Shown: piece by piece, positions 1 to 12,021 of the stretch
Layout of the letters: every line of letters starts with the position of its first letter
Numbering within the stretch: the first letter of the stretch is position 1
Source: an uncultured Spartobacteria bacterium
Lineage (GTDB): Bacteria; Verrucomicrobiota; Verrucomicrobiia; Chthoniobacterales; Chthoniobacteraceae
Assembly: GCA_903919125.1 (NCBI GenBank)
Contig: CAIXGS010000046.1
Span: forward strand, 1 to 64,000
Direction of reading: 5' to 3'
Length of the DNA: 64,000 nt
Translations under genes and position numbers: made by a program
The notes under the pieces: model-generated
The model's input: the letters and a program-made list of their open reading frames with translations, nothing else
What the model was told of the DNA's origin: nothing
The model's database searches: none

Positions 1-403
1 CGAGATAATAACGCCCCTTGATTTGGTCGGCGCAATAAACCTCCTGAACGAAGTCGGAAGGAAGTCCGGGAAGCTTGGGACGAAGCTCGATGTGGGCATG
101 AGCGACGTCTGATTGACGCGGGGCTCCCGGGCCGTTTTTCAGTTTGAATAGTTTTAACCCCACCGCCTTGCCTTTGGACAAATGGGAGAACCGATGCGGG
201 GTTTCTCCCGAGATGCGTATGACAGTCTGAGCCGAGACCCCTGGAGGAGAGCATGCACCCCAAACGACGTTCGAGACGGAGGGATCGAGTTGGAGTATCT
301 CAGCGCTGAGCGTCTCGAGCTCCTGTTTTGCCGTCTGATCGATTTGTGTTTGTTGGCGCGTAACGTTGAAGAATGCGTCGTAGTTTGACCAATCTAATGG
401 CAT
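1..403 (-). CDS. Divergent protein-kinase-like protein, N-terminal fragment (runs off window)
   Basis: An open minus-strand frame of 134 codons starts at ATG 403-401 and runs off the left edge; an in-frame TAA lies 15 nt upstream of the ATG, so the start is well bounded. After about 45 polar residues the protein resembles the N-lobe of a Ser/Thr protein kinase: AVGLKLFK (residues 80-87) matches the beta-3 strand with the ATP-anchoring lysine (Lys84), and the last residues KGRYYL match the beta-5/hinge strand. No clear Gly-rich loop is seen, and the catalytic loop lies outside the window, so activity cannot be judged. It is the last of three co-oriented large genes (repeat protein, SF2 ATPase, this one), separated from the ATPase gene by 254 nt. 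The kinase assignment is inferred from short motifs only; no recognisable Shine-Dalgarno sequence. Confidence 0.5.
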   Translation of the reverse strand, partial: MPLDWSNYDAFFNVTRQQTQIDQTAKQELETLSAEILQLDPSVSNVVWGACSPPGVSAQTVIRISGETPHRFSHLSKGKAVGLKLFKLKNGPGAPRQSDVAHAHIELRPKLPGLPSDFVQEVYCADQIKGRYYL

Positions 404-657
404 ATTTTTTTGGGTGGTTTAGTAGTTTGCGTTTAGGATTTTGTTCCCATTCCCCTCAAGGAAGGGTTCAGCCGCGAGTCGAGCGGATAGAAGCTCGTGT
501 GCGTAGAGAACTAGTATTGGCTACGACCGGTGCCTTTCGGGGGGAGGCCGAGGAATCACCGCTCGGACTGGTACGGGGTTCACGCGACTTAGACCGGGTG
601 ACTCCAAATTGTCTAATTTTTGAAGCCACTCAGTTAACCACATTTCGCCCGAGAGCC

Positions 658-3600
658 TTAAATCTCTAGGGCGCGACGGTAAAAGTTTGCGAGCGGCATG
701 ATGTGTTCGTCGTGAAACTTTTCCGCCATTTGGTTCCTCTCAAGTTTCGCCTGCTCGATAGTTTGCTCGATGACCATCCAGATCCAACGCAACTGATGGT
801 GCTGCTGTCCTGGGCGGGCGAGCCTCCCTCTCATTTGGGGAACCAGATCCGGCTCCACTGGGCGTGAAATGAGAACGTTGAAGTCGACGAGCGTGTTCAC
901 GCCACGAGCGGCTTTTGCTGTGGTGGTGACCACGTGACGACCGGTGATGTCAGGAAAGAGGGTGACGTCCGGACGCAGACTTGCGAGCTTGGCCGCCTCC
1001 GGTGCGCTTCTGGCAAAGATCAACGCGCGGCAGCCTTCCTCCAGTTCATCTAGGAACGAGAAGAGATGCGCGGCAAAGTCGAAGCGTTCCACGAGCAACG
1101 AATCCAGCTTGCCATAAACCATCTTCTCGGGACCGCCAGATTTTCGGATTGAGTCATAGACTTGCCGCGTCTCTGGATCCAATGGGAGGAGACGCAGTTC
1201 CTCCGTCCAGTGCCAAGGGGTGTTTTCGGGCAGGTGGCAGACGATTGACTCAGAGAGGATTGCGTCGAGATATTCCTGTGTTTCCGGGAGACCGGTACGG
1301 AGCATGCGCAGGAGGTAAAAAAGTTCGTTGAACCGGGCACGGAAAAACGTCGCGCTCAACAAAAGAACGCCGCGCTGCGAGCAGGCGACCTGCTTCCACG
1401 CTTCCTGAGTCCACAAGGCGTTCGCGTTCTGGACGGACAAACATTCGTCGATGACCACCAGATGCCAGCGCCGCGTGATGGGGGTATCTCGCATCCGCCC
1501 CAGGGTGGTGACGAGAATTGAATGACGGCCCAAAGGTTCGGACAATTGCCCAGATGCGTCCTGAGAGACGAAGTGAAAGCCGCTGGTATGCTTTCCAATT
1601 TCGGTCTTCCACGTTTCGATCAGCGTCTCGTTGTAGACGAGAACAAGGAAGGCTTCCGCCGTTTCGTCTCCGGTATCACGGTTGTGCTGGGCGAGATTGC
1701 ACATGATCGCGAGGCTGGTGAGGGTCTTGCCCGCGCCGACATCCGAGGCGTCACCGAAGCCTTTTTTGCCGTTTTTCAAAAGTCCCTCCGTGATGCGTAC
1801 TGCCGAGGAGGCCTGATGTTGCCAGAGCGGGGTGGTGACCGTGGGCGTCTCTACGAGTTGAAGCGCTTGCGCCTGTGGGGCGGCGAGTGTTTCGAGGGCC
1901 TGCAGGAGGTGCGGGTAAGAGGAACTCTCCTTGTGAATCTCGAAATCCAGCCCTTTGCAGGGGCGGACGCAGTCAGGATAAACAAAGGCGAGCAGGTTGA
2001 AAATGCGCCACAGGGTTCCTTCGTAAAGGTAATCCACCGCCGCGAAGGTCTTGTCTCCGTGACGGTCTACGGGACCGATGATGACCCGCCCAAGGAAGGT
2101 ACTAAGCAGCTTCGTGTAGGCGCGCTGCCACACCACGGCCGGCACGGGGGATTTCGCGGCGAGGTCAGGCCATTGCAAGTCTGGTTGCTCGGAGTCCAGA
2201 CGACTTTTAGCGAAGAGCCGCAGCGCTTGATTGGTCCCCCATTGGCCCTCGGCCTTTGGTGTTTCGAGGTAAAGGGCGCATTGAATGAGCCGCTCATCGG
2301 AGGGCGAAGGACGCACCGAGATGGTTTCTTCCCGACGTTCGAGCAGGCAGCTCGCGTCAAAGGCGGGAACTTCCACCTCGTCGGCGTGAAAGACCAACTT
2401 GTTTCCAATATCGTCCTGCTCGCCTTCACCAGGAGGCTCGGCATGCCAGAGCGCGATGCGGATGCGAATGGTTTTCCGGTCGTCCGTGAACTTCCAGCGA
2501 TAGCCTGCGGGCGGCGGCGGCAGTTCGACGTCCATTCCATCGGTGATCGCGAGGTGATCGACAACGTCCAGTTCGCCTTCGGCACGTTCCGCTCCCGTCA
2601 GATACGTGGAATGCTTACTCCCTTTCTTTTTAATTTTGATCGGCTCGTGAGGTGTACCCGCGACGACGGCCACAAAAGAGTGGTCCAACCGCCGTCCAGT
2701 TTTAGTGGTGGCTGCTGGGAGTTCGATTTTTTGTCCGAAAATCGAAAGGAAGGAAACGCGCGCCACGATGGGATCCACTGGCGATTGACTTTTGGCGGCA
2801 AACACGCGTTTCGCATAGGGCTCGCTCAATGGCAACTCCGGCAGTTCTCCATTCAAGAGCCAGCGCTGCAGCGAGTGAATTTCGCGGATGATCGCCACGG
2901 AGCTGGGAGCCGACGCAGGGATGTAATGAGGATTACGGGTGTTCAGCCGCGACACATTTTCCCAGATAAAGCGCTTCAGGTTGTGCGTGGTAGGCGGGAG
3001 CTCTTCATTCGCGACTGCTGGCAACGTGCTGGTGCGGGGCGTTTTGTTACGCTTCTTTTTTACCGGTGTCAGGGAGACGCTGCAGGAGGAGATCTGTGGC
3101 AGGGAGGCCTGCAAGTAGAGGAGTATTGCGGGGGTGCAGTGAAAGTCGTCGGAGGCAAGAACCGCAGCTTTTTCCACTTCGGGATCCGAAGCGCCGAGCA
3201 TTTCGTCGTTGCTCCATTGGTTGGGCAAGGGGCTAAATTTTAGATAACTAATACGGATATGCTCGCAGCCTTGGTGCAACATCGCAGCGTCGCGTTCCAT
3301 CATCGGCATGAAGTCGAGCGCTGCGGTGCAGAGCGTTTCCAATGGGGAGCTTCCAGTAATCGCGGTCTTTTTTCCGCCAATACGCCAATTCCAATTCTTG
3401 CCGGCGGCGTCATTCCGCTGCACGAGGAGCGAGGTTCGGAGGATTTTGTGCGCGATGAACTGATTAAACTGCAAGTCTGGCTCTGCATGGGCCAGGATAC
3501 TGAGCGCGACGAGATCTTCCATGCTCAGATAGTCGCCGTTTGGGGAGGCGGTGTAGGGCTCGGCATCCTCGAAGATGGAGATAAAGAGACGCCACGCCAT

Positions 3601-4671
3601 TTGGCGACAGCCGCTGCTGCGTTTGAAATGATCGTCTGGAAGGTGGTAAGTGGGAGCCTTGTGCAGTTCATCCAGACTTGCGGCGAGCGTTTGGGACGCC
3701 TTGCGACCGCGACGGATGCACTTCTGCATCATAGAAGAGAGCAGCCCAACCGATCGTCGCTTCTGGTAAACTGGAACCGGTTCACAAACCCCTGCGGTAT
3801 CGCACGCAATAAGCATACACCTGCCAAGACCCGCATCCTCGTTGCCGGGCGGCTTAAACTCATGGTGTAGAAATCGTGCTTGTTCAGGTTGGGACTGAAT
3901 CCAAGACGTGAGGGTATCAGGCGTCAGTTTCTGAATGGACGTTTTCACGGTCCCGTTTTCCACGAGGACAGCGATTCCGTACTCAGCCTGAAATCCTGCC
4001 TCGACTTCGCTTGCGGTGAGCCATTTCGGTGCAGGAACCAGCTTCAGACCGAAGTGACAACAGTAGGTTGTTTCCGCTTCGCCCTGCCGATGCGGAAGCG
4101 TGTCGATCGCACGGCAAAGTTCTTCCCCGTTTTCAAAGCGCCGACCCAGCCAGTCCTCCGGCACGACGCTAGTTCCAGAATCATCGGCGCTACCGACCGC
4201 AGCGACGGAAAGCGCGAACGGCATCCGATCGGTTCTCGTGAGAAGCAGTCGGGACTGAAGCTCAGGGGCCAGAAGCGCGGTATCCCCGAAATACGCTGGC
4301 GGGATGTCGATTCCGTTTTGAGTGAGCCACAGGGTGAGTACTGCACGGAGGACGCCTTCGCCGTGTTGCAGGAATTCGCTCTCCACGGTCAGCAGTCTGG
4401 CACTCTCAGTGAGATTTCCTGCAACCAGAGCGCGAACCGCATCCGCCACTCGGAGATGAGTGAGGAGGGGCGGGATGTCTTGTTCCGCGCGTACGGCGAA
4501 CTGGTGAAATTTGCCGTTTTTATGCCGAACGGCACACTGACCTTTGGGCAGACCGAAGTTTTGCACATTTGGGAAGAGCTTCCCCCCGTTTGCAACTTGA
4601 GCAGCGTACTTTCCTTTCACTGCGAGAATGGACGTGATTGGGGGCACAAGGGGAGTGGGTATCGGGGGCAT
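658..4671 (-). CDS. Large protein with C-terminal SF2/SNF2-like ATPase domain
   Basis: 1337 residues. The last ~400 hold superfamily-2 motifs in the right order: LWQHQ (Q-motif-like), DVGAGKT (Walker A, about residue 980), VVIDECL (motif II, DECL in place of DEAH/DEXX, about 1073), LLLSAT (motif III, about 1105) and QMRGRLARPGQ (motif VI, about 1285). The spacing and VYNETLIETWKTE after motif I are SNF2-like. The first ~900 residues match no family I know; they contain a basic KKKRNK patch and many Trp/His positions but no nuclease or methylase motif I can point to. It lies 217 nt downstream of the 970-aa repeat-protein gene and upstream of the kinase-like gene, same strand. Probably a DNA- or RNA-acting ATPase; the role is unknown. 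Long antisense frames over it (e.g. 1522-3243 +) are taken as shadows. Confidence 0.8.
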   Translation of the reverse strand: MPPIPTPLVPPITSILAVKGKYAAQVANGGKLFPNVQNFGLPKGQCAVRHKNGKFHQFAVRAEQDIPPLLTHLRVADAVRALVAGNLTESARLLTVESEFLQHGEGVLRAVLTLWLTQNGIDIPPAYFGDTALLAPELQSRLLLTRTDRMPFALSVAAVGSADDSGTSVVPEDWLGRRFENGEELCRAIDTLPHRQGEAETTYCCHFGLKLVPAPKWLTASEVEAGFQAEYGIAVLVENGTVKTSIQKLTPDTLTSWIQSQPEQARFLHHEFKPPGNEDAGLGRCMLIACDTAGVCEPVPVYQKRRSVGLLSSMMQKCIRRGRKASQTLAASLDELHKAPTYHLPDDHFKRSSGCRQMAWRLFISIFEDAEPYTASPNGDYLSMEDLVALSILAHAEPDLQFNQFIAHKILRTSLLVQRNDAAGKNWNWRIGGKKTAITGSSPLETLCTAALDFMPMMERDAAMLHQGCEHIRISYLKFSPLPNQWSNDEMLGASDPEVEKAAVLASDDFHCTPAILLYLQASLPQISSCSVSLTPVKKKRNKTPRTSTLPAVANEELPPTTHNLKRFIWENVSRLNTRNPHYIPASAPSSVAIIREIHSLQRWLLNGELPELPLSEPYAKRVFAAKSQSPVDPIVARVSFLSIFGQKIELPAATTKTGRRLDHSFVAVVAGTPHEPIKIKKKGSKHSTYLTGAERAEGELDVVDHLAITDGMDVELPPPPAGYRWKFTDDRKTIRIRIALWHAEPPGEGEQDDIGNKLVFHADEVEVPAFDASCLLERREETISVRPSPSDERLIQCALYLETPKAEGQWGTNQALRLFAKSRLDSEQPDLQWPDLAAKSPVPAVVWQRAYTKLLSTFLGRVIIGPVDRHGDKTFAAVDYLYEGTLWRIFNLLAFVYPDCVRPCKGLDFEIHKESSSYPHLLQALETLAAPQAQALQLVETPTVTTPLWQHQASSAVRITEGLLKNGKKGFGDASDVGAGKTLTSLAIMCNLAQHNRDTGDETAEAFLVLVYNETLIETWKTEIGKHTSGFHFVSQDASGQLSEPLGRHSILVTTLGRMRDTPITRRWHLVVIDECLSVQNANALWTQEAWKQVACSQRGVLLLSATFFRARFNELFYLLRMLRTGLPETQEYLDAILSESIVCHLPENTPWHWTEELRLLPLDPETRQVYDSIRKSGGPEKMVYGKLDSLLVERFDFAAHLFSFLDELEEGCRALIFARSAPEAAKLASLRPDVTLFPDITGRHVVTTTAKAARGVNTLVDFNVLISRPVEPDLVPQMRGRLARPGQQHHQLRWIWMVIEQTIEQAKLERNQMAEKFHDEHIMPLANFYRRALEI

Positions 4672-4888
4672 AATAGGAGTGGAGCGTCAGCGAGGTCGGG
4701 TCGCTTTTAATTACTGAAAAGTCATTAAAAGTTACAGCCATTCCATAGCCTCGCGAGAAGGATGGCTTTACGGGATTTTCCCATCACTCATTCCTTTGGT
4801 TAACTGCTTGGAAAATTGCCCCGAGAAACATTGCTGTTACAGAGTCTTACAGTATGAGCAGACTGGGGTGCCGTTTGAGGGCAGGGCG

Positions 4889-7801
4889 CTAATTTTTGGC
4901 TTCAGTTAGATCGAATCGACGGCAAAACTTCTCTTTATTCCCCGCCTGACAATGAGGGGGCAGTTTTTCGAACCTTTCCGTCAGAGATCTTTTAATTTCA
5001 ATCTCTGCCTCGACCCACAGCGGAGGAATAGGAGCGCGAAGCCACGTTGCGCTCGAAATGTCCGTCTCTTCATGGTGACCGTCCCCACCGCCAGTTGCTT
5101 CAGAGGCTACGGATTCGGTACTCGGGTTCACCGTTCGCGGGTTCAACCAAGCCCGAGGTGGAAGTGCCCAAAGGTCTTGTTCTGAGAACTCAGCGATTCG
5201 ATTGGTCCACCCCTTTATTAGGGCATCTACCACACTGCGATCTTCGTGTAACAGGTGAGGGAGTTCCCACAATGACAGCGGCTCAAATCGCACTTTCCTC
5301 ACCCAGCCGGCTTGGAAGGCCTCGAAAACCGACGACCACGAATTGGATAAAAGCGACTTCGGAATTTTATCGGGGTGCACCGCATTCTGTCTAAGCGCAA
5401 GCAGCCACCCCTTCTTCCAAGCCTCTTGGACCGCATCTATTTCCCTCCAAGCTTCGGGAACTTCATTCAGTGTATGGACGGGATGGTTGCTCAAAAACTG
5501 AACCCAGTTTTCCTGCGACATTTCTGGAATGCTGGGCGTCTTGGAATCTGGAGCCGAAAACTTCCGTTTCTGAGGCAATAAATACCAAGCCTTGATCCAA
5601 CGCAAAAACAGGGACTCTTTTTCCTCAACATTGTCCGGTATCGGGGAGCTGATCCAGTGTCGCTCAGTCGCCTCAGAAAGCCATTTTTCAATCAGTTTCA
5701 AACCCAAATCTTGATCCGCTTTGAAACACTCTGGCAAACAATGCCACGGGATGAATTCGTTGTTAACTGCGTTCAACCAGGTGCGTTTCCAAGCCCGCAA
5801 AACGGAAGCATCGTCTAATACTAACGAGGGAATCCTATCTCTAGGCAGTGCCAGCCCATTTTTCTCAATAAAGTCCCTCCATCCCCGAATCCAAGCCGAG
5901 CGCACTTCTGGGTCACCGCTTAATGCCTCGGGAATCAGCGCAGATGGAATCGGAGTTCTCCTGAGTTCGCTTAACAAACTAGAGCGACCAAGTTTCCGTT
6001 GGGCTTCATCGACATGAGCAAGTCGGTCGGTAATATCTCTGAGCCCGACGAGTCCTTCCCTGCAAAGATTCTCAATCAGAGGGTGCGAGCGCAATGCCTT
6101 CGGAACTTCGTTAAGGGCATACGTCTTTCCACTGCGCCGCGCGAATTGACTCCACGAATGTGCCCAACAATCCAGAAGCCCGCCATTGAGCAGCGTCACA
6201 TTTTGGAAAGTAGGAAACGGCATTTCATGCTCATCCAACGAATACTCGGAATTCACATTGGAAATAGCCCGCATCGCCCAAGCCTCTAGGATTTGTGGAA
6301 TGTTCCTGAGCTGTAAGGGAAGCTTTTTCCACATTCCGTCGGAACTCCACACTTTCTCGGGACTCAACAACAGCCACCGCCGCCAAGCCCATGCCCACGC
6401 CTCACGCGACTCGAGTCTGTCCGCCACACCGCCTTCACGCCAATCCGGATCGAGCGTCCCTAAGTGGACCGCGATTTCCAACACTTTCACGGCGCTGAGT
6501 TCTTGGTTCTGAGTTCTGGAGTCTGAGTTCTGAGTTCTAGGTTCTTGGTTCTGAGTTCTGGGTTCTTGGCCTCCAGTATCGGCGACTGTCCCGTTCTCTT
6601 GAGAATCTTCCCCAGACGGGTTTGCCCGAAGCTCAAAGCGATCAAACACTCGAGGTGTTCTGATATCGTCAACTCCAAGCACACCCGCCGCGTCGTAGGT
6701 CCCCCAACCTTCCCTCCACGCACCCAGAACAACCCCGAGATCATTTGAAAGCTCGGCTGGGATGCGTTTGAACGGGACACTCCGACTGCGAAGAAATGCC
6801 AACCAGCCCTCCCTCCAAGCGGCAAAAAGCGCGGGGTCGTTCGTGATTCCCAAGCGGCGAGCCACGCCTTCATCCAGCAGCTCACTCCGCAATCTCTGCA
6901 TCCGGTGAATCCCCTCGACTTCAGGATCGGCAGATTTTAGCAACTCCATCAATCGCAGGCGCATCCATTTCTCATCAACATCCGCATCCTTGAGAACCGC
7001 GCTGGGCACCCGTTCCAAAAGCCGCCCAAAACTGTCCATCGAAGTCCGGAGCAATTCGCGGATGAAACGCGTCTGCTGAAAAATCAAAGCCTCAGTCAGA
7101 CGTCTTACCTTCTCCTCTGGCTTTGAATTTCCAAATTCATTAACCGCTTGAGCAACATGAGATTCCCACCGGCGGTAGCAGTCCCGTTGGGCCGTGATTG
7201 CCTCGGGCATTTCCCCAGGGAATCCAAGAAGACCGATCCGCCCTATTTTTACGAGGTCAGACAGTGCCCTCCATTGCTCCAGCGACACGATACGGCTCAG
7301 GCATTTCAAGCGCTCTTGGTTGCTTGAATTATTGAACCGTCTCAACGCAAGAGCCCTCTGTTTCCTCCAACTGATCGAGGCGTTTTTTTGCGAGCTACGC
7401 AGCAGTTTTGGGAAGTCGTTAATGAACCCGTGCAACACGCAGTCAGTCTCTAGAGTCAGGAACGCGAGAAAATCATGCTCTCCCAACTCCTCGGCTTGTA
7501 AAATCCGCGCGGCCTTTTCCTGATCCGAAAGCCGATTGAACTTGGCGAGCATGGTCTGTATCCCGGTTTTCCAACGTTCTATCACGACTCGGCAGCGACC
7601 GAGACGGCTCGGCAAGAAGCACAAGAGCCCTTCCTGGACGCATTTTGTCCTTAGGATCAATTTACTCAAGATACCCCACTCTTCACATTTGAGGACCCAT
7701 TGGATTTCGGTAAACTGTTGGTCATAGGGGAGCTCCCTGAAGGCGCTAATCGCGCGGTCATCAGCATCTGGGCCTCGGTGTTGCATCGAACGGGGGTTCA
7801 T
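4889..7801 (-). CDS. 970-aa protein made of two families of helical repeats, function unknown
   Basis: No known family recognised. Residues 21-291 consist of four consecutive units of 69, 68, 67 and 67 residues (21-89, 90-157, 158-224, 225-291), each with a polar start (SDQEK / SNQER / SKPEEK), an amphipathic helix, a central hydrophobic stretch, a Pro about residue 42, a Trp near position 56 and a basic helix. From about residue 320 to 880 a second, shorter unit recurs with the pattern IP-x2-L-x2-D-x2-V-x2-AW-x2-GW (AWREGW twice, AWIRGW, AWKRTW, AWKKGW, AFQAGW, ALIKGW). Both look like alpha-solenoids. A linker of EPRTQNQ type (about residues 410-435) is encoded by a heptanucleotide array. 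No signal peptide or membrane span. First gene of the three-gene minus-strand locus; probably a scaffold or recognition subunit, which is inference. Confidence 0.75.
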   Translation of the reverse strand: MNPRSMQHRGPDADDRAISAFRELPYDQQFTEIQWVLKCEEWGILSKLILRTKCVQEGLLCFLPSRLGRCRVVIERWKTGIQTMLAKFNRLSDQEKAARILQAEELGEHDFLAFLTLETDCVLHGFINDFPKLLRSSQKNASISWRKQRALALRRFNNSSNQERLKCLSRIVSLEQWRALSDLVKIGRIGLLGFPGEMPEAITAQRDCYRRWESHVAQAVNEFGNSKPEEKVRRLTEALIFQQTRFIRELLRTSMDSFGRLLERVPSAVLKDADVDEKWMRLRLMELLKSADPEVEGIHRMQRLRSELLDEGVARRLGITNDPALFAAWREGWLAFLRSRSVPFKRIPAELSNDLGVVLGAWREGWGTYDAAGVLGVDDIRTPRVFDRFELRANPSGEDSQENGTVADTGGQEPRTQNQEPRTQNSDSRTQNQELSAVKVLEIAVHLGTLDPDWREGGVADRLESREAWAWAWRRWLLLSPEKVWSSDGMWKKLPLQLRNIPQILEAWAMRAISNVNSEYSLDEHEMPFPTFQNVTLLNGGLLDCWAHSWSQFARRSGKTYALNEVPKALRSHPLIENLCREGLVGLRDITDRLAHVDEAQRKLGRSSLLSELRRTPIPSALIPEALSGDPEVRSAWIRGWRDFIEKNGLALPRDRIPSLVLDDASVLRAWKRTWLNAVNNEFIPWHCLPECFKADQDLGLKLIEKWLSEATERHWISSPIPDNVEEKESLFLRWIKAWYLLPQKRKFSAPDSKTPSIPEMSQENWVQFLSNHPVHTLNEVPEAWREIDAVQEAWKKGWLLALRQNAVHPDKIPKSLLSNSWSSVFEAFQAGWVRKVRFEPLSLWELPHLLHEDRSVVDALIKGWTNRIAEFSEQDLWALPPRAWLNPRTVNPSTESVASEATGGGDGHHEETDISSATWLRAPIPPLWVEAEIEIKRSLTERFEKLPPHCQAGNKEKFCRRFDLTEAKN
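6499..6568. repeat. Heptanucleotide array, 10 units, inside the 970-aa gene
   Basis: Ten consecutive 7-bp units on the plus strand: GTTCTTG, GTTCTGA, GTTCTGG, AGTCTGA, GTTCTGA, GTTCTAG, GTTCTTG, GTTCTGA, GTTCTGG, GTTCTTG. Read on the coding (minus) strand they give a low-complexity Gln/Pro/Arg/Thr/Asn linker. Because 7 is not a multiple of 3, gain or loss of one unit would shift the frame of the host gene. Closely related units form a second array at 57868-57972. Confidence 0.9.
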
Positions 7802-7932
7802 GTCGGAATTTCAGAAATAGCCTCACCACGATGGATCAATTGGAAACGAGAGGCCTGCAGCTTTATCTTAATGGACTAATGAAGTGCATTTTTCAGCGTC
7901 AGACATCAAGGGAGTAGGCGCCAAAAAGACAC

Positions 7933-7961
7933 AAAAAAGCGCGGACTTCAAGAAGCCGCGC
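7933..7961 (-). terminator. Rho-independent terminator of trxA
   Basis: On the minus strand GCGCGG pairs with CCGCGC and, inside, CTTC with GAAG around a TT loop with one bulged T; six T residues follow (7938-7933). It begins 30 nt past the trxA stop codon. Confidence 0.85.
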
Positions 7962-7991
7962 CTTTCTGAAACTGAAAATAACGATGTTCGC

Positions 7992-8321
7992 TTAGAGCAG
8001 TGCGTCTAGCTTGGCGGTCAACGTGGTCTTGGAGGCAGCGCCCACCAAGGTTTCCACCGGTTCGCCATTTTTGAAGAAGAGCAAAGCGGGAATCGAGGAA
8101 ATGCGATACCGCGCAGCGAGGGCTTGGCAATCGTCGACATTGATCTTTGCGACCTTTGCTTGGCCAACTTTGGCGTCCGCAATTTCATCAATAACCGGGC
8201 CGAGCATGCGGCAAGGTCCGCACCAAGGCGCCCAAAAGTCTACTAGAACGGGAACCGTGGAGTGAATAATTTCGGAGTCGAAATTGGACTCGGTGATAGT
8301 GATTACGTTTGTGCTTGCCAT
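7992..8321 (-). CDS. trxA: Thioredoxin
   Basis: 109 residues, the usual thioredoxin length. The redox motif WCGPC is at residues 33-37 and the cis-proline (SIPAL) at residue 78. It is a cytosolic protein-disulfide reductase, normally recycled by thioredoxin reductase, which is not in the window. The gene follows the Pro/Ala-rich membrane protein gene by 19 nt on the same strand, so the two are probably co-transcribed, ending at the terminator at 7933-7961. The start ATG at 8321 gives the classic short N-terminus (MASTNVITIT). Confidence 0.97.
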   Translation of the reverse strand: MASTNVITITESNFDSEIIHSTVPVLVDFWAPWCGPCRMLGPVIDEIADAKVGQAKVAKINVDDCQALAARYRISSIPALLFFKNGEPVETLVGAASKTTLTAKLDALL

Positions 8322-8340
8322 AAGTTAATAAAAAATCAGC

Positions 8341-9792
8341 TCACTTAATAGAAGTGTAGGTCATAAAGGTGCTGGCAGCTGAGAGTAGCGCGACCACAGC
8401 CGCCGCAATCGTCAACCAACGATCCAAGCCGCTGGAACCACCCTGCTCGGCGACCTCTTCCTCAGGTTCGCCCGCGATATCAAAATCGGAAACCGCAGGA
8501 GGTTTAGGAGCAAATACCTTACGGGCCGGAACGGTTGAACCTTCCGAATACACTGCGGCAGGAACCGGCGGGGTTGAACCGGGAACGGGAGCCTTTACCA
8601 AAGGAGTCGTCGCTTTGGGAGGCGCAACGGCGGTTACCTTGGGACCGACCGTGGGGGTTGCTCCAGTTTGGAGGCGAACGGTGGCTTTCGGCAACGCGTC
8701 TTGAGCGGTCTTGCCCAACGCAACTGTAGCGGTGACTGGTTTAGCTGCAAGTGCCACCGTCGCAGTGGGAGGACTTCCTGGGGCTTTGGGTGGCGTCAAT
8801 GCAGGGAGCCCGGGTGCGGAAGGCGCCGGCGACTTTAACGCGACAGTCTGAGTGCCATCAGCAGTGGACGCCCCAACCGTGGGCGCGGTCATCGCTGCCG
8901 GGCGAACCGGAGCGGGTGGCGCGGCCTGCAAAGGAGCAGTGACAGGCAAGGCCGCTGCAGGTGGGCGGGGAGGTGCAGGAGGAGCGCCTCCTCCCAACGG
9001 GACCGGTGGGCGAGCCACGGGAGGACCGGCGATGGGAGCCAAAGACGGCGGAGCTGGAACAGGAGATGGAAGTGGTGCGGGCGCAGGTGCCAAGGGGGCT
9101 GGTGCAGCGGCTATTGGCGCGGGTGCAGCGGGTATCGGCGCGGGTGCAGCGGCTATTGGCGCGGGTGCAGCGGCTATTGGCGCGGGTGCAGCGGCTATTG
9201 GCGCGGGTGCAGCGGCTACTGGCGCGGGTGCAGCGGCTATTGGCGCGGGTGCAGCGGCTATTGGCGCGGGTGCGGCGGCGATCGGGGCGGGCGCGGAAAC
9301 TATCGGTGCCGGTGCGGAGGGAGAAGGCGGTAGAGGCGCAGCCTTGGGCAGAAACGGGGTAATGGCCGGAGGAGGCGCGACTGCTATGACAGGCGGAGCG
9401 GAAACGACGGGGGCCGGTGGTGCCACTGGAGAGGGAACCCCCGAACTGGCAACCAAGCGAACCGTCTCTTGTCTTGCGGAGACTACACCAGGTTGGGATC
9501 CTGCTTGAACGACCTGTGCAGAGGTTAGGCGTACGGTTACTTTGGAAGGCGCACCACCTGCGGGCGCTGGCGCGACGGGTACCGTTTTGATTACAGCCGG
9601 AGCGGGTGCCGCAATTGGCGGCCGAATCGCGGAAGGCGCGGCAATTGGCGAGGGAGCAGCTATGGGTTTGGGTAAAGACCCCGCCACGACCGGCGCGGGC
9701 AGAGGAGCCTTCAGCTTGGGAGGGAGCGTGATACGAATGGACTCCGGCGAAGGAACGCTGGGAGCCGGAGAAGTTGGGGGTGTCTCAGACAT
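8341..9792 (-). CDS. Pro/Ala-rich protein with single C-terminal membrane anchor
   Basis: 483 residues, of which nearly all before residue 410 are Pro, Ala, Val and small residues, including about ten 7-residue APAPIAA units encoded by a 21-bp tandem repeat (9101-9310). The C-terminus has a short acidic stretch (GEPEEEVAEQ) followed by one hydrophobic span (about residues 459-478) and a short polar tail, so it looks tail-anchored with a long extended stalk on the N-terminal side. No signal peptide or enzyme motif. Probably co-transcribed with trxA 19 nt downstream. The Pro/Ala composition resembles spacer regions of TonB-like or wall-spanning proteins, but no TonB C-terminal domain is present. 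The opposite strand is also open here (Gly/Ala-rich frame 8852-9508), a result of the repeat composition. Confidence 0.75.
   Translation of the reverse strand: MSETPPTSPAPSVPSPESIRITLPPKLKAPLPAPVVAGSLPKPIAAPSPIAAPSAIRPPIAAPAPAVIKTVPVAPAPAGGAPSKVTVRLTSAQVVQAGSQPGVVSARQETVRLVASSGVPSPVAPPAPVVSAPPVIAVAPPPAITPFLPKAAPLPPSPSAPAPIVSAPAPIAAAPAPIAAAPAPIAAAPAPVAAAPAPIAAAPAPIAAAPAPIAAAPAPIPAAPAPIAAAPAPLAPAPAPLPSPVPAPPSLAPIAGPPVARPPVPLGGGAPPAPPRPPAAALPVTAPLQAAPPAPVRPAAMTAPTVGASTADGTQTVALKSPAPSAPGLPALTPPKAPGSPPTATVALAAKPVTATVALGKTAQDALPKATVRLQTGATPTVGPKVTAVAPPKATTPLVKAPVPGSTPPVPAAVYSEGSTVPARKVFAPKPPAVSDFDIAGEPEEEVAEQGGSSGLDRWLTIAAAVVALLSAASTFMTYTSIK
9101..9310. repeat. 21-bp tandem repeat, about ten units
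   Basis: Units of GGTGCAGCGGCTATTGGCG plus CG follow head to tail, eight nearly identical and the outer two diverged. Each encodes seven residues (APAPIAA) of the membrane-anchored protein on the minus strand. The unit is a multiple of 3, so copy-number change would alter stalk length without breaking the frame. Confidence 0.9.
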
Positions 9793-10884: not shown

Positions 10885-12021
10885 ATGGAAACTCAGGCTT
10901 GCTCCCCTTCCCTAGTTGCCTCGCTTTGCCAGGCACTCGTCCGTATTCCAAGCGTCAATCCCGACGACAATCCGGGCACCGATCAGACTGGAGAAGCACA
11001 TTGCGCCCAATGGATTGCACAATGGCTAAAGACCGAGTTCCCAGGAATTCACGTCGAGACCCCAGAAGTCCTTCCGGGACGCCCCAATGTGGTGGCCCGA
11101 TTCCCCTCGGACACGCTCGGAAAACCCCGTCTGCTTTTCGCGCCGCATACCGACACAGTCTCGATAGTGGGCATGACGATTGATCCCTTTGGCGGTGAAA
11201 TTCGCGACGGCAAAATCTATGGCCGAGGCGCAAGTGACACCAAGGGTCCCATGGCGTCGATGCTCGCGGCCCTTCACTCCGCGCGTGAGGTGCTCCCTCA
11301 CCTCTCCCACGAAATCTGGTTCGCGGGCCTCGCGGGAGAAGAAGCTGGCCAGCACGGTGCCCACGCCCTCGCCGCCACCGAACATTTCGATCTCGTCATC
11401 GCAGGCGAACCGACTGGATTGGATGCCGTTTTCACCCACAAAGGGAGTATGTTCATCTCCCTCACCACTCGCGGGATCGCCGTGCACGCCGCACAACCGG
11501 AGAAAGGTCGCAATGCCATTTATGCCATGATGGATATTCTCCAACTGGTTCAAAGAGAATTAGTACCCTGGCTAAAAACCTTCACACATCCTATTCTGGG
11601 ACACTCAACCATCAGCGCAGGCACCGTCCAAGGAGGCAGCAAGACCAACGTCGTCCCAGACTTTTGCCATGCCACCCTAGACATCCGTACTGTTCCGGGA
11701 CAGGGCGAGCCCTTTGAAGCGGAGCTTTTTGCTAAATTGCGTAGCGTCTGCCCAGACATCGAAATCGAAGTCCGCCGCTCCCTGCCGCTTTTGACGGATA
11801 GGGAGCATCCCCTGCTTCAAAAATTGGGACAACTTGGGGCGCAACCCGTTGGGGCTCCGTGGTTCTGCGATGCAGCGGTATTCGCCCAACAAGGCAGTGC
11901 TGCGATTGCGATGGGACCGGGCTCCATTGCGCAAGCGCACACTTGTGACGAATGGATAGCGGTTAAAGACCTAGAAAAAGGAGTGGAATTCTTTGGAAGC
12001 TTCCTACGTCTACTTCAGTAA
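10885..12021 (+). CDS. M20-family metallopeptidase/deacylase (ArgE/DapE-like)
   Basis: 378 residues. Di-zinc ligands and catalytic residues of the M20 family are visible: His88 with Asp90 (APHTD), Asp118 (GRGASDTKG), Glu152/Glu153 (AGEEAG), Glu175 (AGEPT) and a C-terminal His in AQAHTCDEW; the lid-domain His is in VHAAQPEKG. Family members hydrolyse N-acylated amino acids (acetylornithine, succinyl-diaminopimelate) or dipeptides. The sequence does not tell which substrate applies, and no arginine or lysine biosynthesis neighbours are present. It starts 6 nt after the epimerase gene. Confidence 0.85.
   Translation: METQACSPSLVASLCQALVRIPSVNPDDNPGTDQTGEAHCAQWIAQWLKTEFPGIHVETPEVLPGRPNVVARFPSDTLGKPRLLFAPHTDTVSIVGMTIDPFGGEIRDGKIYGRGASDTKGPMASMLAALHSAREVLPHLSHEIWFAGLAGEEAGQHGAHALAATEHFDLVIAGEPTGLDAVFTHKGSMFISLTTRGIAVHAAQPEKGRNAIYAMMDILQLVQRELVPWLKTFTHPILGHSTISAGTVQGGSKTNVVPDFCHATLDIRTVPGQGEPFEAELFAKLRSVCPDIEIEVRRSLPLLTDREHPLLQKLGQLGAQPVGAPWFCDAAVFAQQGSAAIAMGPGSIAQAHTCDEWIAVKDLEKGVEFFGSFLRLLQ

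What the first reader, a model, noticed from the sequence alone, without database searches (positions are those of the whole stretch)
1..7801. Three-gene locus of repeat protein, SF2 ATPase and kinase-like protein with no recognised precedent
Three large co-oriented genes in a row encode a 970-aa double-repeat protein, a 1337-aa SNF2-like ATPase with about 900 unassigned N-terminal residues, and a protein beginning like a divergent kinase. ATPase plus kinase plus scaffold resembles the composition of defence or chromatin-type systems (for example helicase/kinase sets in BREX-like islands), but none of the named core genes of those systems is seen. The defence idea is inference; the seen facts are the order, strand and motifs.
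Basis: partly seen in the sequence, partly recalled or inferred. Interest (0 to 1): 0.75.

Follow-up and report, generated by a model that had tools for sequence, protein, structure and literature searches.

The report
Kinase–SNF2 pair beside unrelated repeat protein
A DNA-motor protein and a kinase-like protein that occur together as a rare two-gene module, probably for cell defence, sit in an accessory gene island next to a repeat protein that belongs to a different set of island genes, so the suspected three-gene system is really two modules side by side.

Summary
The three ORFs are real. The window begins at a contig end, which cuts the third gene after 134 codons. The SNF2-type ATPase has one full-length relative (61% identity) in another Verrucomicrobiaceae MAG. 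There it lies in a tight operon right after a complete 310-aa copy of the third protein. SNF2 and kinase are therefore a recurring pair (2 of 2 loci, gene order reversed). They are very rare: no match in several hundred sampled genomes of the phylum.

The 970-aa protein is not a constant partner. Its orthologs occur in two same-genus genomes without the SNF2 gene, in accessory islands with radical-SAM, NADAR, MoxR/DUF2201 and other tryptophan-repeat genes. Its C-terminal repeats are distantly like DUF4116, a predicted alpha-solenoid.

By synteny, the locus is one edge of an island of at least 31.8 kb inserted behind trxA; the rest lies on contig C14. A 126-bp upstream element found only in the three island genomes marks other island genes, not the trio.

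Best reading: an accessory, probably defence-type kinase–SNF2 module. Function is inferred; structure prediction failed and the 930-aa N-terminus remains unassigned.

The parts
2..403 (-). N-terminal 134 codons of a protein-kinase-like gene, cut by the contig end just before the kinase hinge; beta-3 Lys in AVGLKLFKL
   Evidence: ORF; 46% identical to the N-terminal part of the complete 310-aa L002 protein, which has hinge, DxxxxN and DFG-like motifs; that protein matches PD-T4-6 and MkoA kinase regions in PADLOC
658..4671 (-). SNF2-type SF2 ATPase, 1337 aa
   Evidence: PF00176 1.8e-12; full-length relative in L002 at 61% identity
658..1839 (-). C-terminal SF2 motor region (about residues 945-1337): Walker A DVGAGKT 1723-1743, DEC box near 1441-1458, SAT near 1348-1362, motif VI QMRGRLARPGQ 805-837
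1882..4671 (-). About 930 unassigned N-terminal residues of the ATPase, 57% identical to the L002 relative
   Evidence: no Pfam, NCBIfam, PADLOC, PHROGs or PDB-sequence match there; conserved; AlphaFold2 model unusable, pLDDT 29.4
4889..7801 (-). 970-aa double-repeat protein: about 67-aa repeats in the first 260 residues, degenerate about 33-aa tryptophan repeats (residues about 320-870) after that
   Evidence: orthologs in G013 and G005
7927..7927 (.). Island boundary: homology with the nearest relative G007 runs through trxA and its terminator-like downstream hairpin and stops here
   Evidence: blastn against L045; trxA is followed by an RND operon in G007, and that operon is on contig C14 from 23861 in this genome
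7992..8321 (-). trxA (thioredoxin), core gene flanking the island
   Evidence: ORF; trxA conserved in genus relatives with variable downstream genes

Best explanation
The locus is the edge of an accessory island of at least 31.8 kb and joins two separable things. (1) A rare two-gene module: a SNF2-type ATPase and a divergent protein kinase. Inferred mechanism: the SNF2 motor surveys or remodels DNA or nucleoprotein, with its 930-aa N-terminal part as the recognition region; the kinase is the partner it controls and, when released or activated, phosphorylates host or invader proteins, a sensor-effector logic like that of other helicase-based anti-phage systems (for example the HamB sensor helicase with the HamA nuclease). 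(2) A 970-aa, probably alpha-solenoid, repeat protein that belongs to a genus-level island set (MoxR/DUF2201, NADAR, radical SAM, further tryptophan-repeat proteins). Shown here: recurrence of the pair, the kinase residues, the island boundary, the independence of the 970-aa protein. Inferred: the defence role, the activation step and the targets.
For: SNF2 and kinase adjacent in both known loci, in reversed order. Complete kinase in L002 with GLKIF, YFLVQDWIDG, WWDVRGDN, VVMIDTDS and PADLOC matches to PD-T4-6 4.6e-5 and MkoA 3.3e-4. SF2 motifs intact in both SNF2 copies. In L002 the pair forms a tight operon behind a DUF5131 gene that matches PADLOC candidates PDC-M41B 1.8e-35 and PDC-M30B 1e-34. 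Sporadic: 1 of 40 family, 1 of 388 phylum, 1 of 384 class genomes. Accessory site: homology to G007 breaks at 7927 and at C14:23861. 970-aa orthologs in two genus members without the SNF2 gene; the island cis element occurs in exactly the same three genomes.
Against: Only two loci of the pair, both in MAGs. The window kinase is incomplete. No phage-linked or plasmid-linked copy. No structure: both models failed. Codon use and GC3 look host-like. The join of contigs C46 and C14 is inferred from synteny. No defence test exists.
Confidence: 0.42

Rival explanations
1. The pair serves regulation or DNA/RNA metabolism of the island or of a mobile element (RapA-like polymerase recycling, repair, anti-restriction) rather than defence, with the kinase as its regulator.
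For: SNF2 motors include RapA-type factors; weak RapA match at motif VI (E 0.16); best PHROGs match is a phage DNA helicase family (3e-16), though only over the ATPase core.
Against: No mobility genes, integrase or phage genes recognised beside it; relatives absent from phage and plasmid records except the ATPase core.
Confidence: 0.27
2. SNF2 and kinase are interchangeable effectors or accessories of the larger MoxR/DUF2201/tryptophan-repeat/NADAR island (a MoxR-vWA type conflict system), which would then be one functional unit.
For: Same orientation as MoxR and DUF2201 if C46 and C14 join; Kaur et al. 2020 describe MoxR-vWA conflict systems with varied effectors and superstructure-forming repeats (PMC7159879).
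Against: Island members G005 and G013 lack the SNF2 gene; no DUF2201 relative was found in the L002 genome (a negative without a positive control); the shared upstream element is not in front of the trio.
Confidence: 0.18
3. The three genes form one dedicated three-gene system.
For: Contiguous and co-oriented in the window.
Against: 970-aa orthologs occur without SNF2; the L002 pair has no ortholog beside it, and its genome has only distant tryptophan-repeat proteins on other contigs, best E 8e-7. Intergenic gaps of 217 and 254 bp in the window are not those of a tight operon.
Confidence: 0.08

Closest known systems
Helicase-plus-kinase anti-phage systems: Mokosh (MkoA) and type 2 BREX (PglW kinase, BrxHI helicase)
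   Same: A nucleic-acid motor combined with a protein kinase in an accessory locus; the kinase weakly matches MkoA (3.3e-4) and PD-T4-6 (4.6e-5) in its catalytic half
   Different: Small stand-alone kinase; SNF2 motor with a unique 930-aa N-terminus; SNF2 does not match MkoA; no BREX core genes among those scanned. Per PMC12839542, PglW carries NERD nuclease plus tandem kinases and BrxHI is Ski2-like
SNF2 motors of defence systems: DpdE, ZorD, DISARM DrmD, BrxHII
   Same: SNF2-type ATPase core; best PADLOC matches are DpdE 5.1e-7 and ZorD 3.7e-6
   Different: Matches cover only the ATPase core (about residues 930-1130); far below the NCBIfam DpdE cut-off (14.7 of 500 bits)
Hachiman HamAB (as a mode of working, not as a family)
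   Same: A motor protein as sensor that controls a small effector (PMC12278908); proposed analogy only
   Different: Effector here is a kinase, not a nuclease; HamB is not SNF2-type; no homology claimed
MoxR-vWA conflict systems (Kaur et al. 2020)
   Same: The island on C14 has a MoxR-type AAA ATPase beside a VWA-like DUF2201 protein and repeat proteins
   Different: DUF2201 is not mentioned in that paper; the trio itself contains none of the core components
DUF4116 repeat proteins
   Same: The canonical 33-aa repeat protein of the L002 genome matches DUF4116 (8e-6, above its cut-off); DUF4116 was modelled as an alpha-solenoid (PMC8078820)
   Different: The 970-aa protein itself does not reach DUF4116; its repeats are more degenerate and it has a second, 67-aa repeat type

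Membership tests
SNF2-type SF2 ATPase | Walker A, DExx box, SAT and motif VI (QxxGRxxRxGQ) with a SNF2 profile match | tested here: met
   PF00176 47.4 bits against cut-off 24.9; motifs at residues 977, 1072, 1106, 1279
Protein kinase superfamily | beta-3 Lys, hinge, catalytic Asp with DxxxxN, DFG-position Asp | tested here: met
   All present by inspection in the L002 homologue, PADLOC kinase matches; the window copy is cut before the hinge. No Pfam kinase match
Protein kinase superfamily | Bilobal kinase fold | tested here: inconclusive
   AlphaFold2 model pLDDT 37.5, not usable
BREX | Core genes pglZ and brxC/pglY beside the helicase/kinase | tested here: inconclusive
   None among the 13 proteins scanned with PADLOC (only a weak BrxA match 0.0018 in L002:7601-8455), but not every island gene was scanned and the gap between C46 and C14 is unsequenced
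Mokosh | MkoA with kinase and RecD-like helicase in one or two proteins | tested here: not met
   Motor is SNF2-type and gives no Mko match; only the kinase half resembles MkoA weakly
Zorya / Dpd | Full-length ZorD or DpdE with partner genes | tested here: not met
   Only the ATPase core matches; no partner genes among the scanned neighbours
MoxR-vWA conflict systems | MoxR AAA ATPase paired with a vWA protein | tested here: met
   On C14, not in the trio: AAA_5 7.2e-8 next to DUF2201 1.6e-29
MoxR-vWA conflict systems | Third component such as VMAP | not tested
   No VMAP profile at hand
Three-gene system as proposed | Conserved co-occurrence of all three genes | tested here: not met
   970-aa orthologs without the SNF2 gene; pair without the ortholog beside it in L002

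The most novel reading that the evidence does not exclude
A so far undescribed two-gene immune module in which a SNF2 motor with a unique 930-aa recognition region holds and releases a small stand-alone kinase effector, sometimes with a DUF5131 (radical-SAM-like) third component.
Probability: 0.28. Interest if true: 0.7.

Novelty: new variant of a known kind. Interest (0 to 1): 0.42.

Why it matters
If the pair is a defence module, it would link a SNF2-type DNA motor to phosphorylation signalling in a minimal two-gene form, a tractable setting for asking how a DNA-tracking ATPase switches on an effector kinase. The island around it is of separate interest: it combines MoxR/DUF2201, tryptophan-repeat proteins, NADAR enzymes and radical-SAM genes with a shared upstream element found only in island-bearing genomes.

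Tried and rejected
AlphaFold2 of the kinase (pLDDT 37.5) and of the SNF2 N-terminal 930 residues (29.4) was too poor for a fold search, so none was run. PDB sequence searches gave nothing for SNF2 and the repeat protein and only a chance match for the kinase. IMG/VR scans for SNF2, repeat protein and kinase found no relative; phages none; plasmids only the ATPase core. A suspected MgsA/RarA-C-like segment in SNF2 residues 295-440 (a resemblance from memory) had no Pfam support. Foreign codon usage as a sign of recent transfer: not seen. The missing kinase half was not found elsewhere in the genome. The L002 DUF5131 protein and the island radical-SAM protein, and the two kinases, show no BLASTP similarity to each other. 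An RNA structure for the shared upstream element had little covariation support. Literature searches for DUF5131 returned no paper in the held library.
Full report
OBSERVATION. The window is the first 64 kb of contig C46 (111.5 kb) of a 4.34-Mb assembly, 95% complete. Base 1 is the contig end. On the minus strand there are three co-oriented ORFs: 7801-4889 (970 aa), 4671-658 (1337 aa) and one that starts at 403 and leaves the contig after 134 codons. The 1337-aa protein is a SNF2-type SF2 ATPase at its C-terminus (PF00176, 47.4 bits, residues 976-1131). It has DVGAGKT, VVIDEC, SAT, VTTTAKAARGVN and QMRGRLARPGQ at residues 977, 1072, 1106, 1248 and 1279. Its first 930 residues match nothing convincing in Pfam, NCBIfam, PADLOC, PHROGs or PDB sequences. 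The 970-aa protein has two kinds of internal repeat; both exceed shuffled controls.

THE PAIR. A scan of GTDB genomes found one relative of the ATPase: full length, 61% identical, in a Verrucomicrobiaceae MAG (L002). Immediately upstream lies a 310-aa protein, 46% identical to the truncated third ORF of the window. In L002 the genes form a tight operon: DUF5131 (1380-2195), kinase (2204-3136), SNF2 (start at 3146 or about 3182). In the window the order is SNF2, then kinase, with a 254-bp gap. Adjacency of the same two rare genes in reversed order in two genomes argues for a functional pair rather than a merely inherited neighbourhood. Its best PADLOC matches are PD-T4-6 (4.6e-5) and MkoA (3.3e-4), over the catalytic half. 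Pfam and the PDB gave nothing, so it is a divergent kinase.

RARITY. SNF2: 1 of 40 family genomes and 1 of 388 phylum genomes at 1e-30. N-terminal profile at 1e-5: 1 of 384 class genomes. Kinase: 1 of 388 phylum genomes. The single match is always the window's own genome. IMG/VR and phage records have none, and plasmids only the generic ATPase core. These are samples with one genome per species, and the GTDB scan used a single sequence and reaches close relatives only, so the true range may be wider.

THE REPEAT PROTEIN IS SEPARATE. Orthologs (47-52% identical over most of the length) occur in two genomes of the same genus, G013 and G005, neither of which has the SNF2 gene (G005 is only 68% complete). 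In both, the ortholog follows a radical-SAM gene, and a NADAR gene lies on the same contig; G013 also has an OGG-like protein and a 1435-aa tryptophan-repeat protein there. The L002 genome has only distant tryptophan-repeat proteins (best E 8e-7) on other, short contigs. The clearest version of the repeat, about 33 aa with the pattern DEEVIxARKTGWMELLKRDVTRWNTCPEFLQ, matches DUF4116 at 8e-6. DUF4116 was modelled as an alpha-solenoid (PMC8078820). A scaffold or sensor role for the 970-aa protein is a reasonable inference, not a result.

THE ISLAND. In the nearest relative, G007, trxA is followed directly by an RND efflux operon. In the window, homology to G007 runs through trxA and ends at about 7927. 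The RND operon of the window's genome lies on contig C14 from 23861, with 23.9 kb of other genes before it, back to that contig's own end. The simplest reading is one island of at least 31.8 kb between trxA and the RND operon, split by an assembly gap inside or behind the kinase gene. The contig join is inferred. The C14 part holds, among others, a MoxR-type AAA ATPase, a DUF2201 metallopeptidase/VWA-like protein, two tryptophan-repeat proteins, a polyvalent-type kinase, a histone-deacetylase-family protein, a VWA protein, two NADAR-type proteins (the second just below Pfam's cut-off), a WYL regulator and a radical-SAM protein. In other genus members with readable trxA flanks (G005, G012, G013, G015) different genes follow trxA, so the site is variable. 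Codon use and GC3 of the island genes resemble the host's, so recent arrival from a distant donor is not indicated.

A SHARED UPSTREAM ELEMENT. The first bases of C14 belong to a 126-bp non-coding element. It also lies in front of a NADAR gene on C14, of MoxR and a 1037-aa repeat protein in G005, and of NADAR genes in G005 and G013. Among 40 family genomes it occurs only in G000, G005 and G013, six copies in all, the same three genomes that hold the 970-aa protein or its full-length orthologs. Some copies have a TATAAT box; there is no Rfam match and little covariation (term -0.44), so a promoter/operator is at least as likely as a leader RNA. It is not found in the window, so it is not known to control the trio.

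MECHANISM. Shown: a SNF2 ATPase with intact motifs; a kinase-like partner with intact key residues in its relative; their recurrence; their accessory nature. Inferred: that the motor senses DNA or nucleoprotein and controls the kinase, and that the output is protection against invaders. Support for defence is indirect: sporadic occurrence, neighbours (DUF5131 matching PADLOC candidates in L002; MoxR/DUF2201 and NADAR genes in the island; NADARs reverse guanine ADP-ribosylation and act as antitoxins, PMC11543638 and PMC11125620 abstracts) and the resemblance of each part to defence proteins. Regulation or repair for a mobile element remains possible.

VERDICT. The three ORFs are real and the kinase suspicion was good. 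The three-gene system is not supported: there is a rare kinase-SNF2 pair and a repeat protein of another island module beside it. The defining features of the named systems tested were not met by the pair. It is best filed as a new variant of helicase-plus-kinase accessory modules, function inferred.

Noticed in passing
L057:15-141 and 11461-11587; L014:1088-1212; L015:4770-4895 and 8338-8466; L013:922-1047: A 126-bp non-coding element (core ACACATGGGNTTTGTGGGTGGGGAGGTGTTG) upstream of MoxR, NADAR and tryptophan-repeat genes; only in G000, G005 and G013 of 40 family genomes. Looks like a shared promoter/operator or leader of an island regulon.
   Followed up: partly
L057 (G000 C14:1-20000) and L058:1-2452: Rest of the island: MoxR, DUF2201, tryptophan-repeat proteins, polyvalent kinase, HDAC-family protein, VWA, two NADAR-type genes, WYL regulator, radical SAM, and a repeat protein with AHRGxLxL units that also occurs on G005 C9.
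   Followed up: partly
L053:285-3251 and L022:1-2538: Very regular 33-aa tryptophan-repeat proteins (988 and 845 aa, both incomplete at the contig end) in the genome of L002, distantly like DUF4116; the two contigs begin with the same repeat units.
   Followed up: partly
window 6495-6569: Array of heptamer-based repeats (CTGAGTT/CTGGGTT/CTTGGTT) inside the 970-aa gene, translated as an EPRTQN-rich linker between its two halves.
   Followed up: no
window 8341-9792, array 9101-9291: Pro/Ala-rich protein next to trxA with a 21-bp tandem repeat array of 9 copies; relatives carry similar arrays of different length.
   Followed up: no
L002:324-1335 and 7106-8455: Neighbours of the L002 pair: DUF4357-like and GIY-YIG-like proteins upstream, an FRG-like fragment and a protein with a PD-(D/E)xK-like stretch (by eye) downstream.
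   Followed up: no
L013:6409-7914: Protein with an OGG-like DNA glycosylase domain (PF21790, 5.7e-13) in the G013 island, between a tryptophan-repeat protein and the radical-SAM gene.
   Followed up: no
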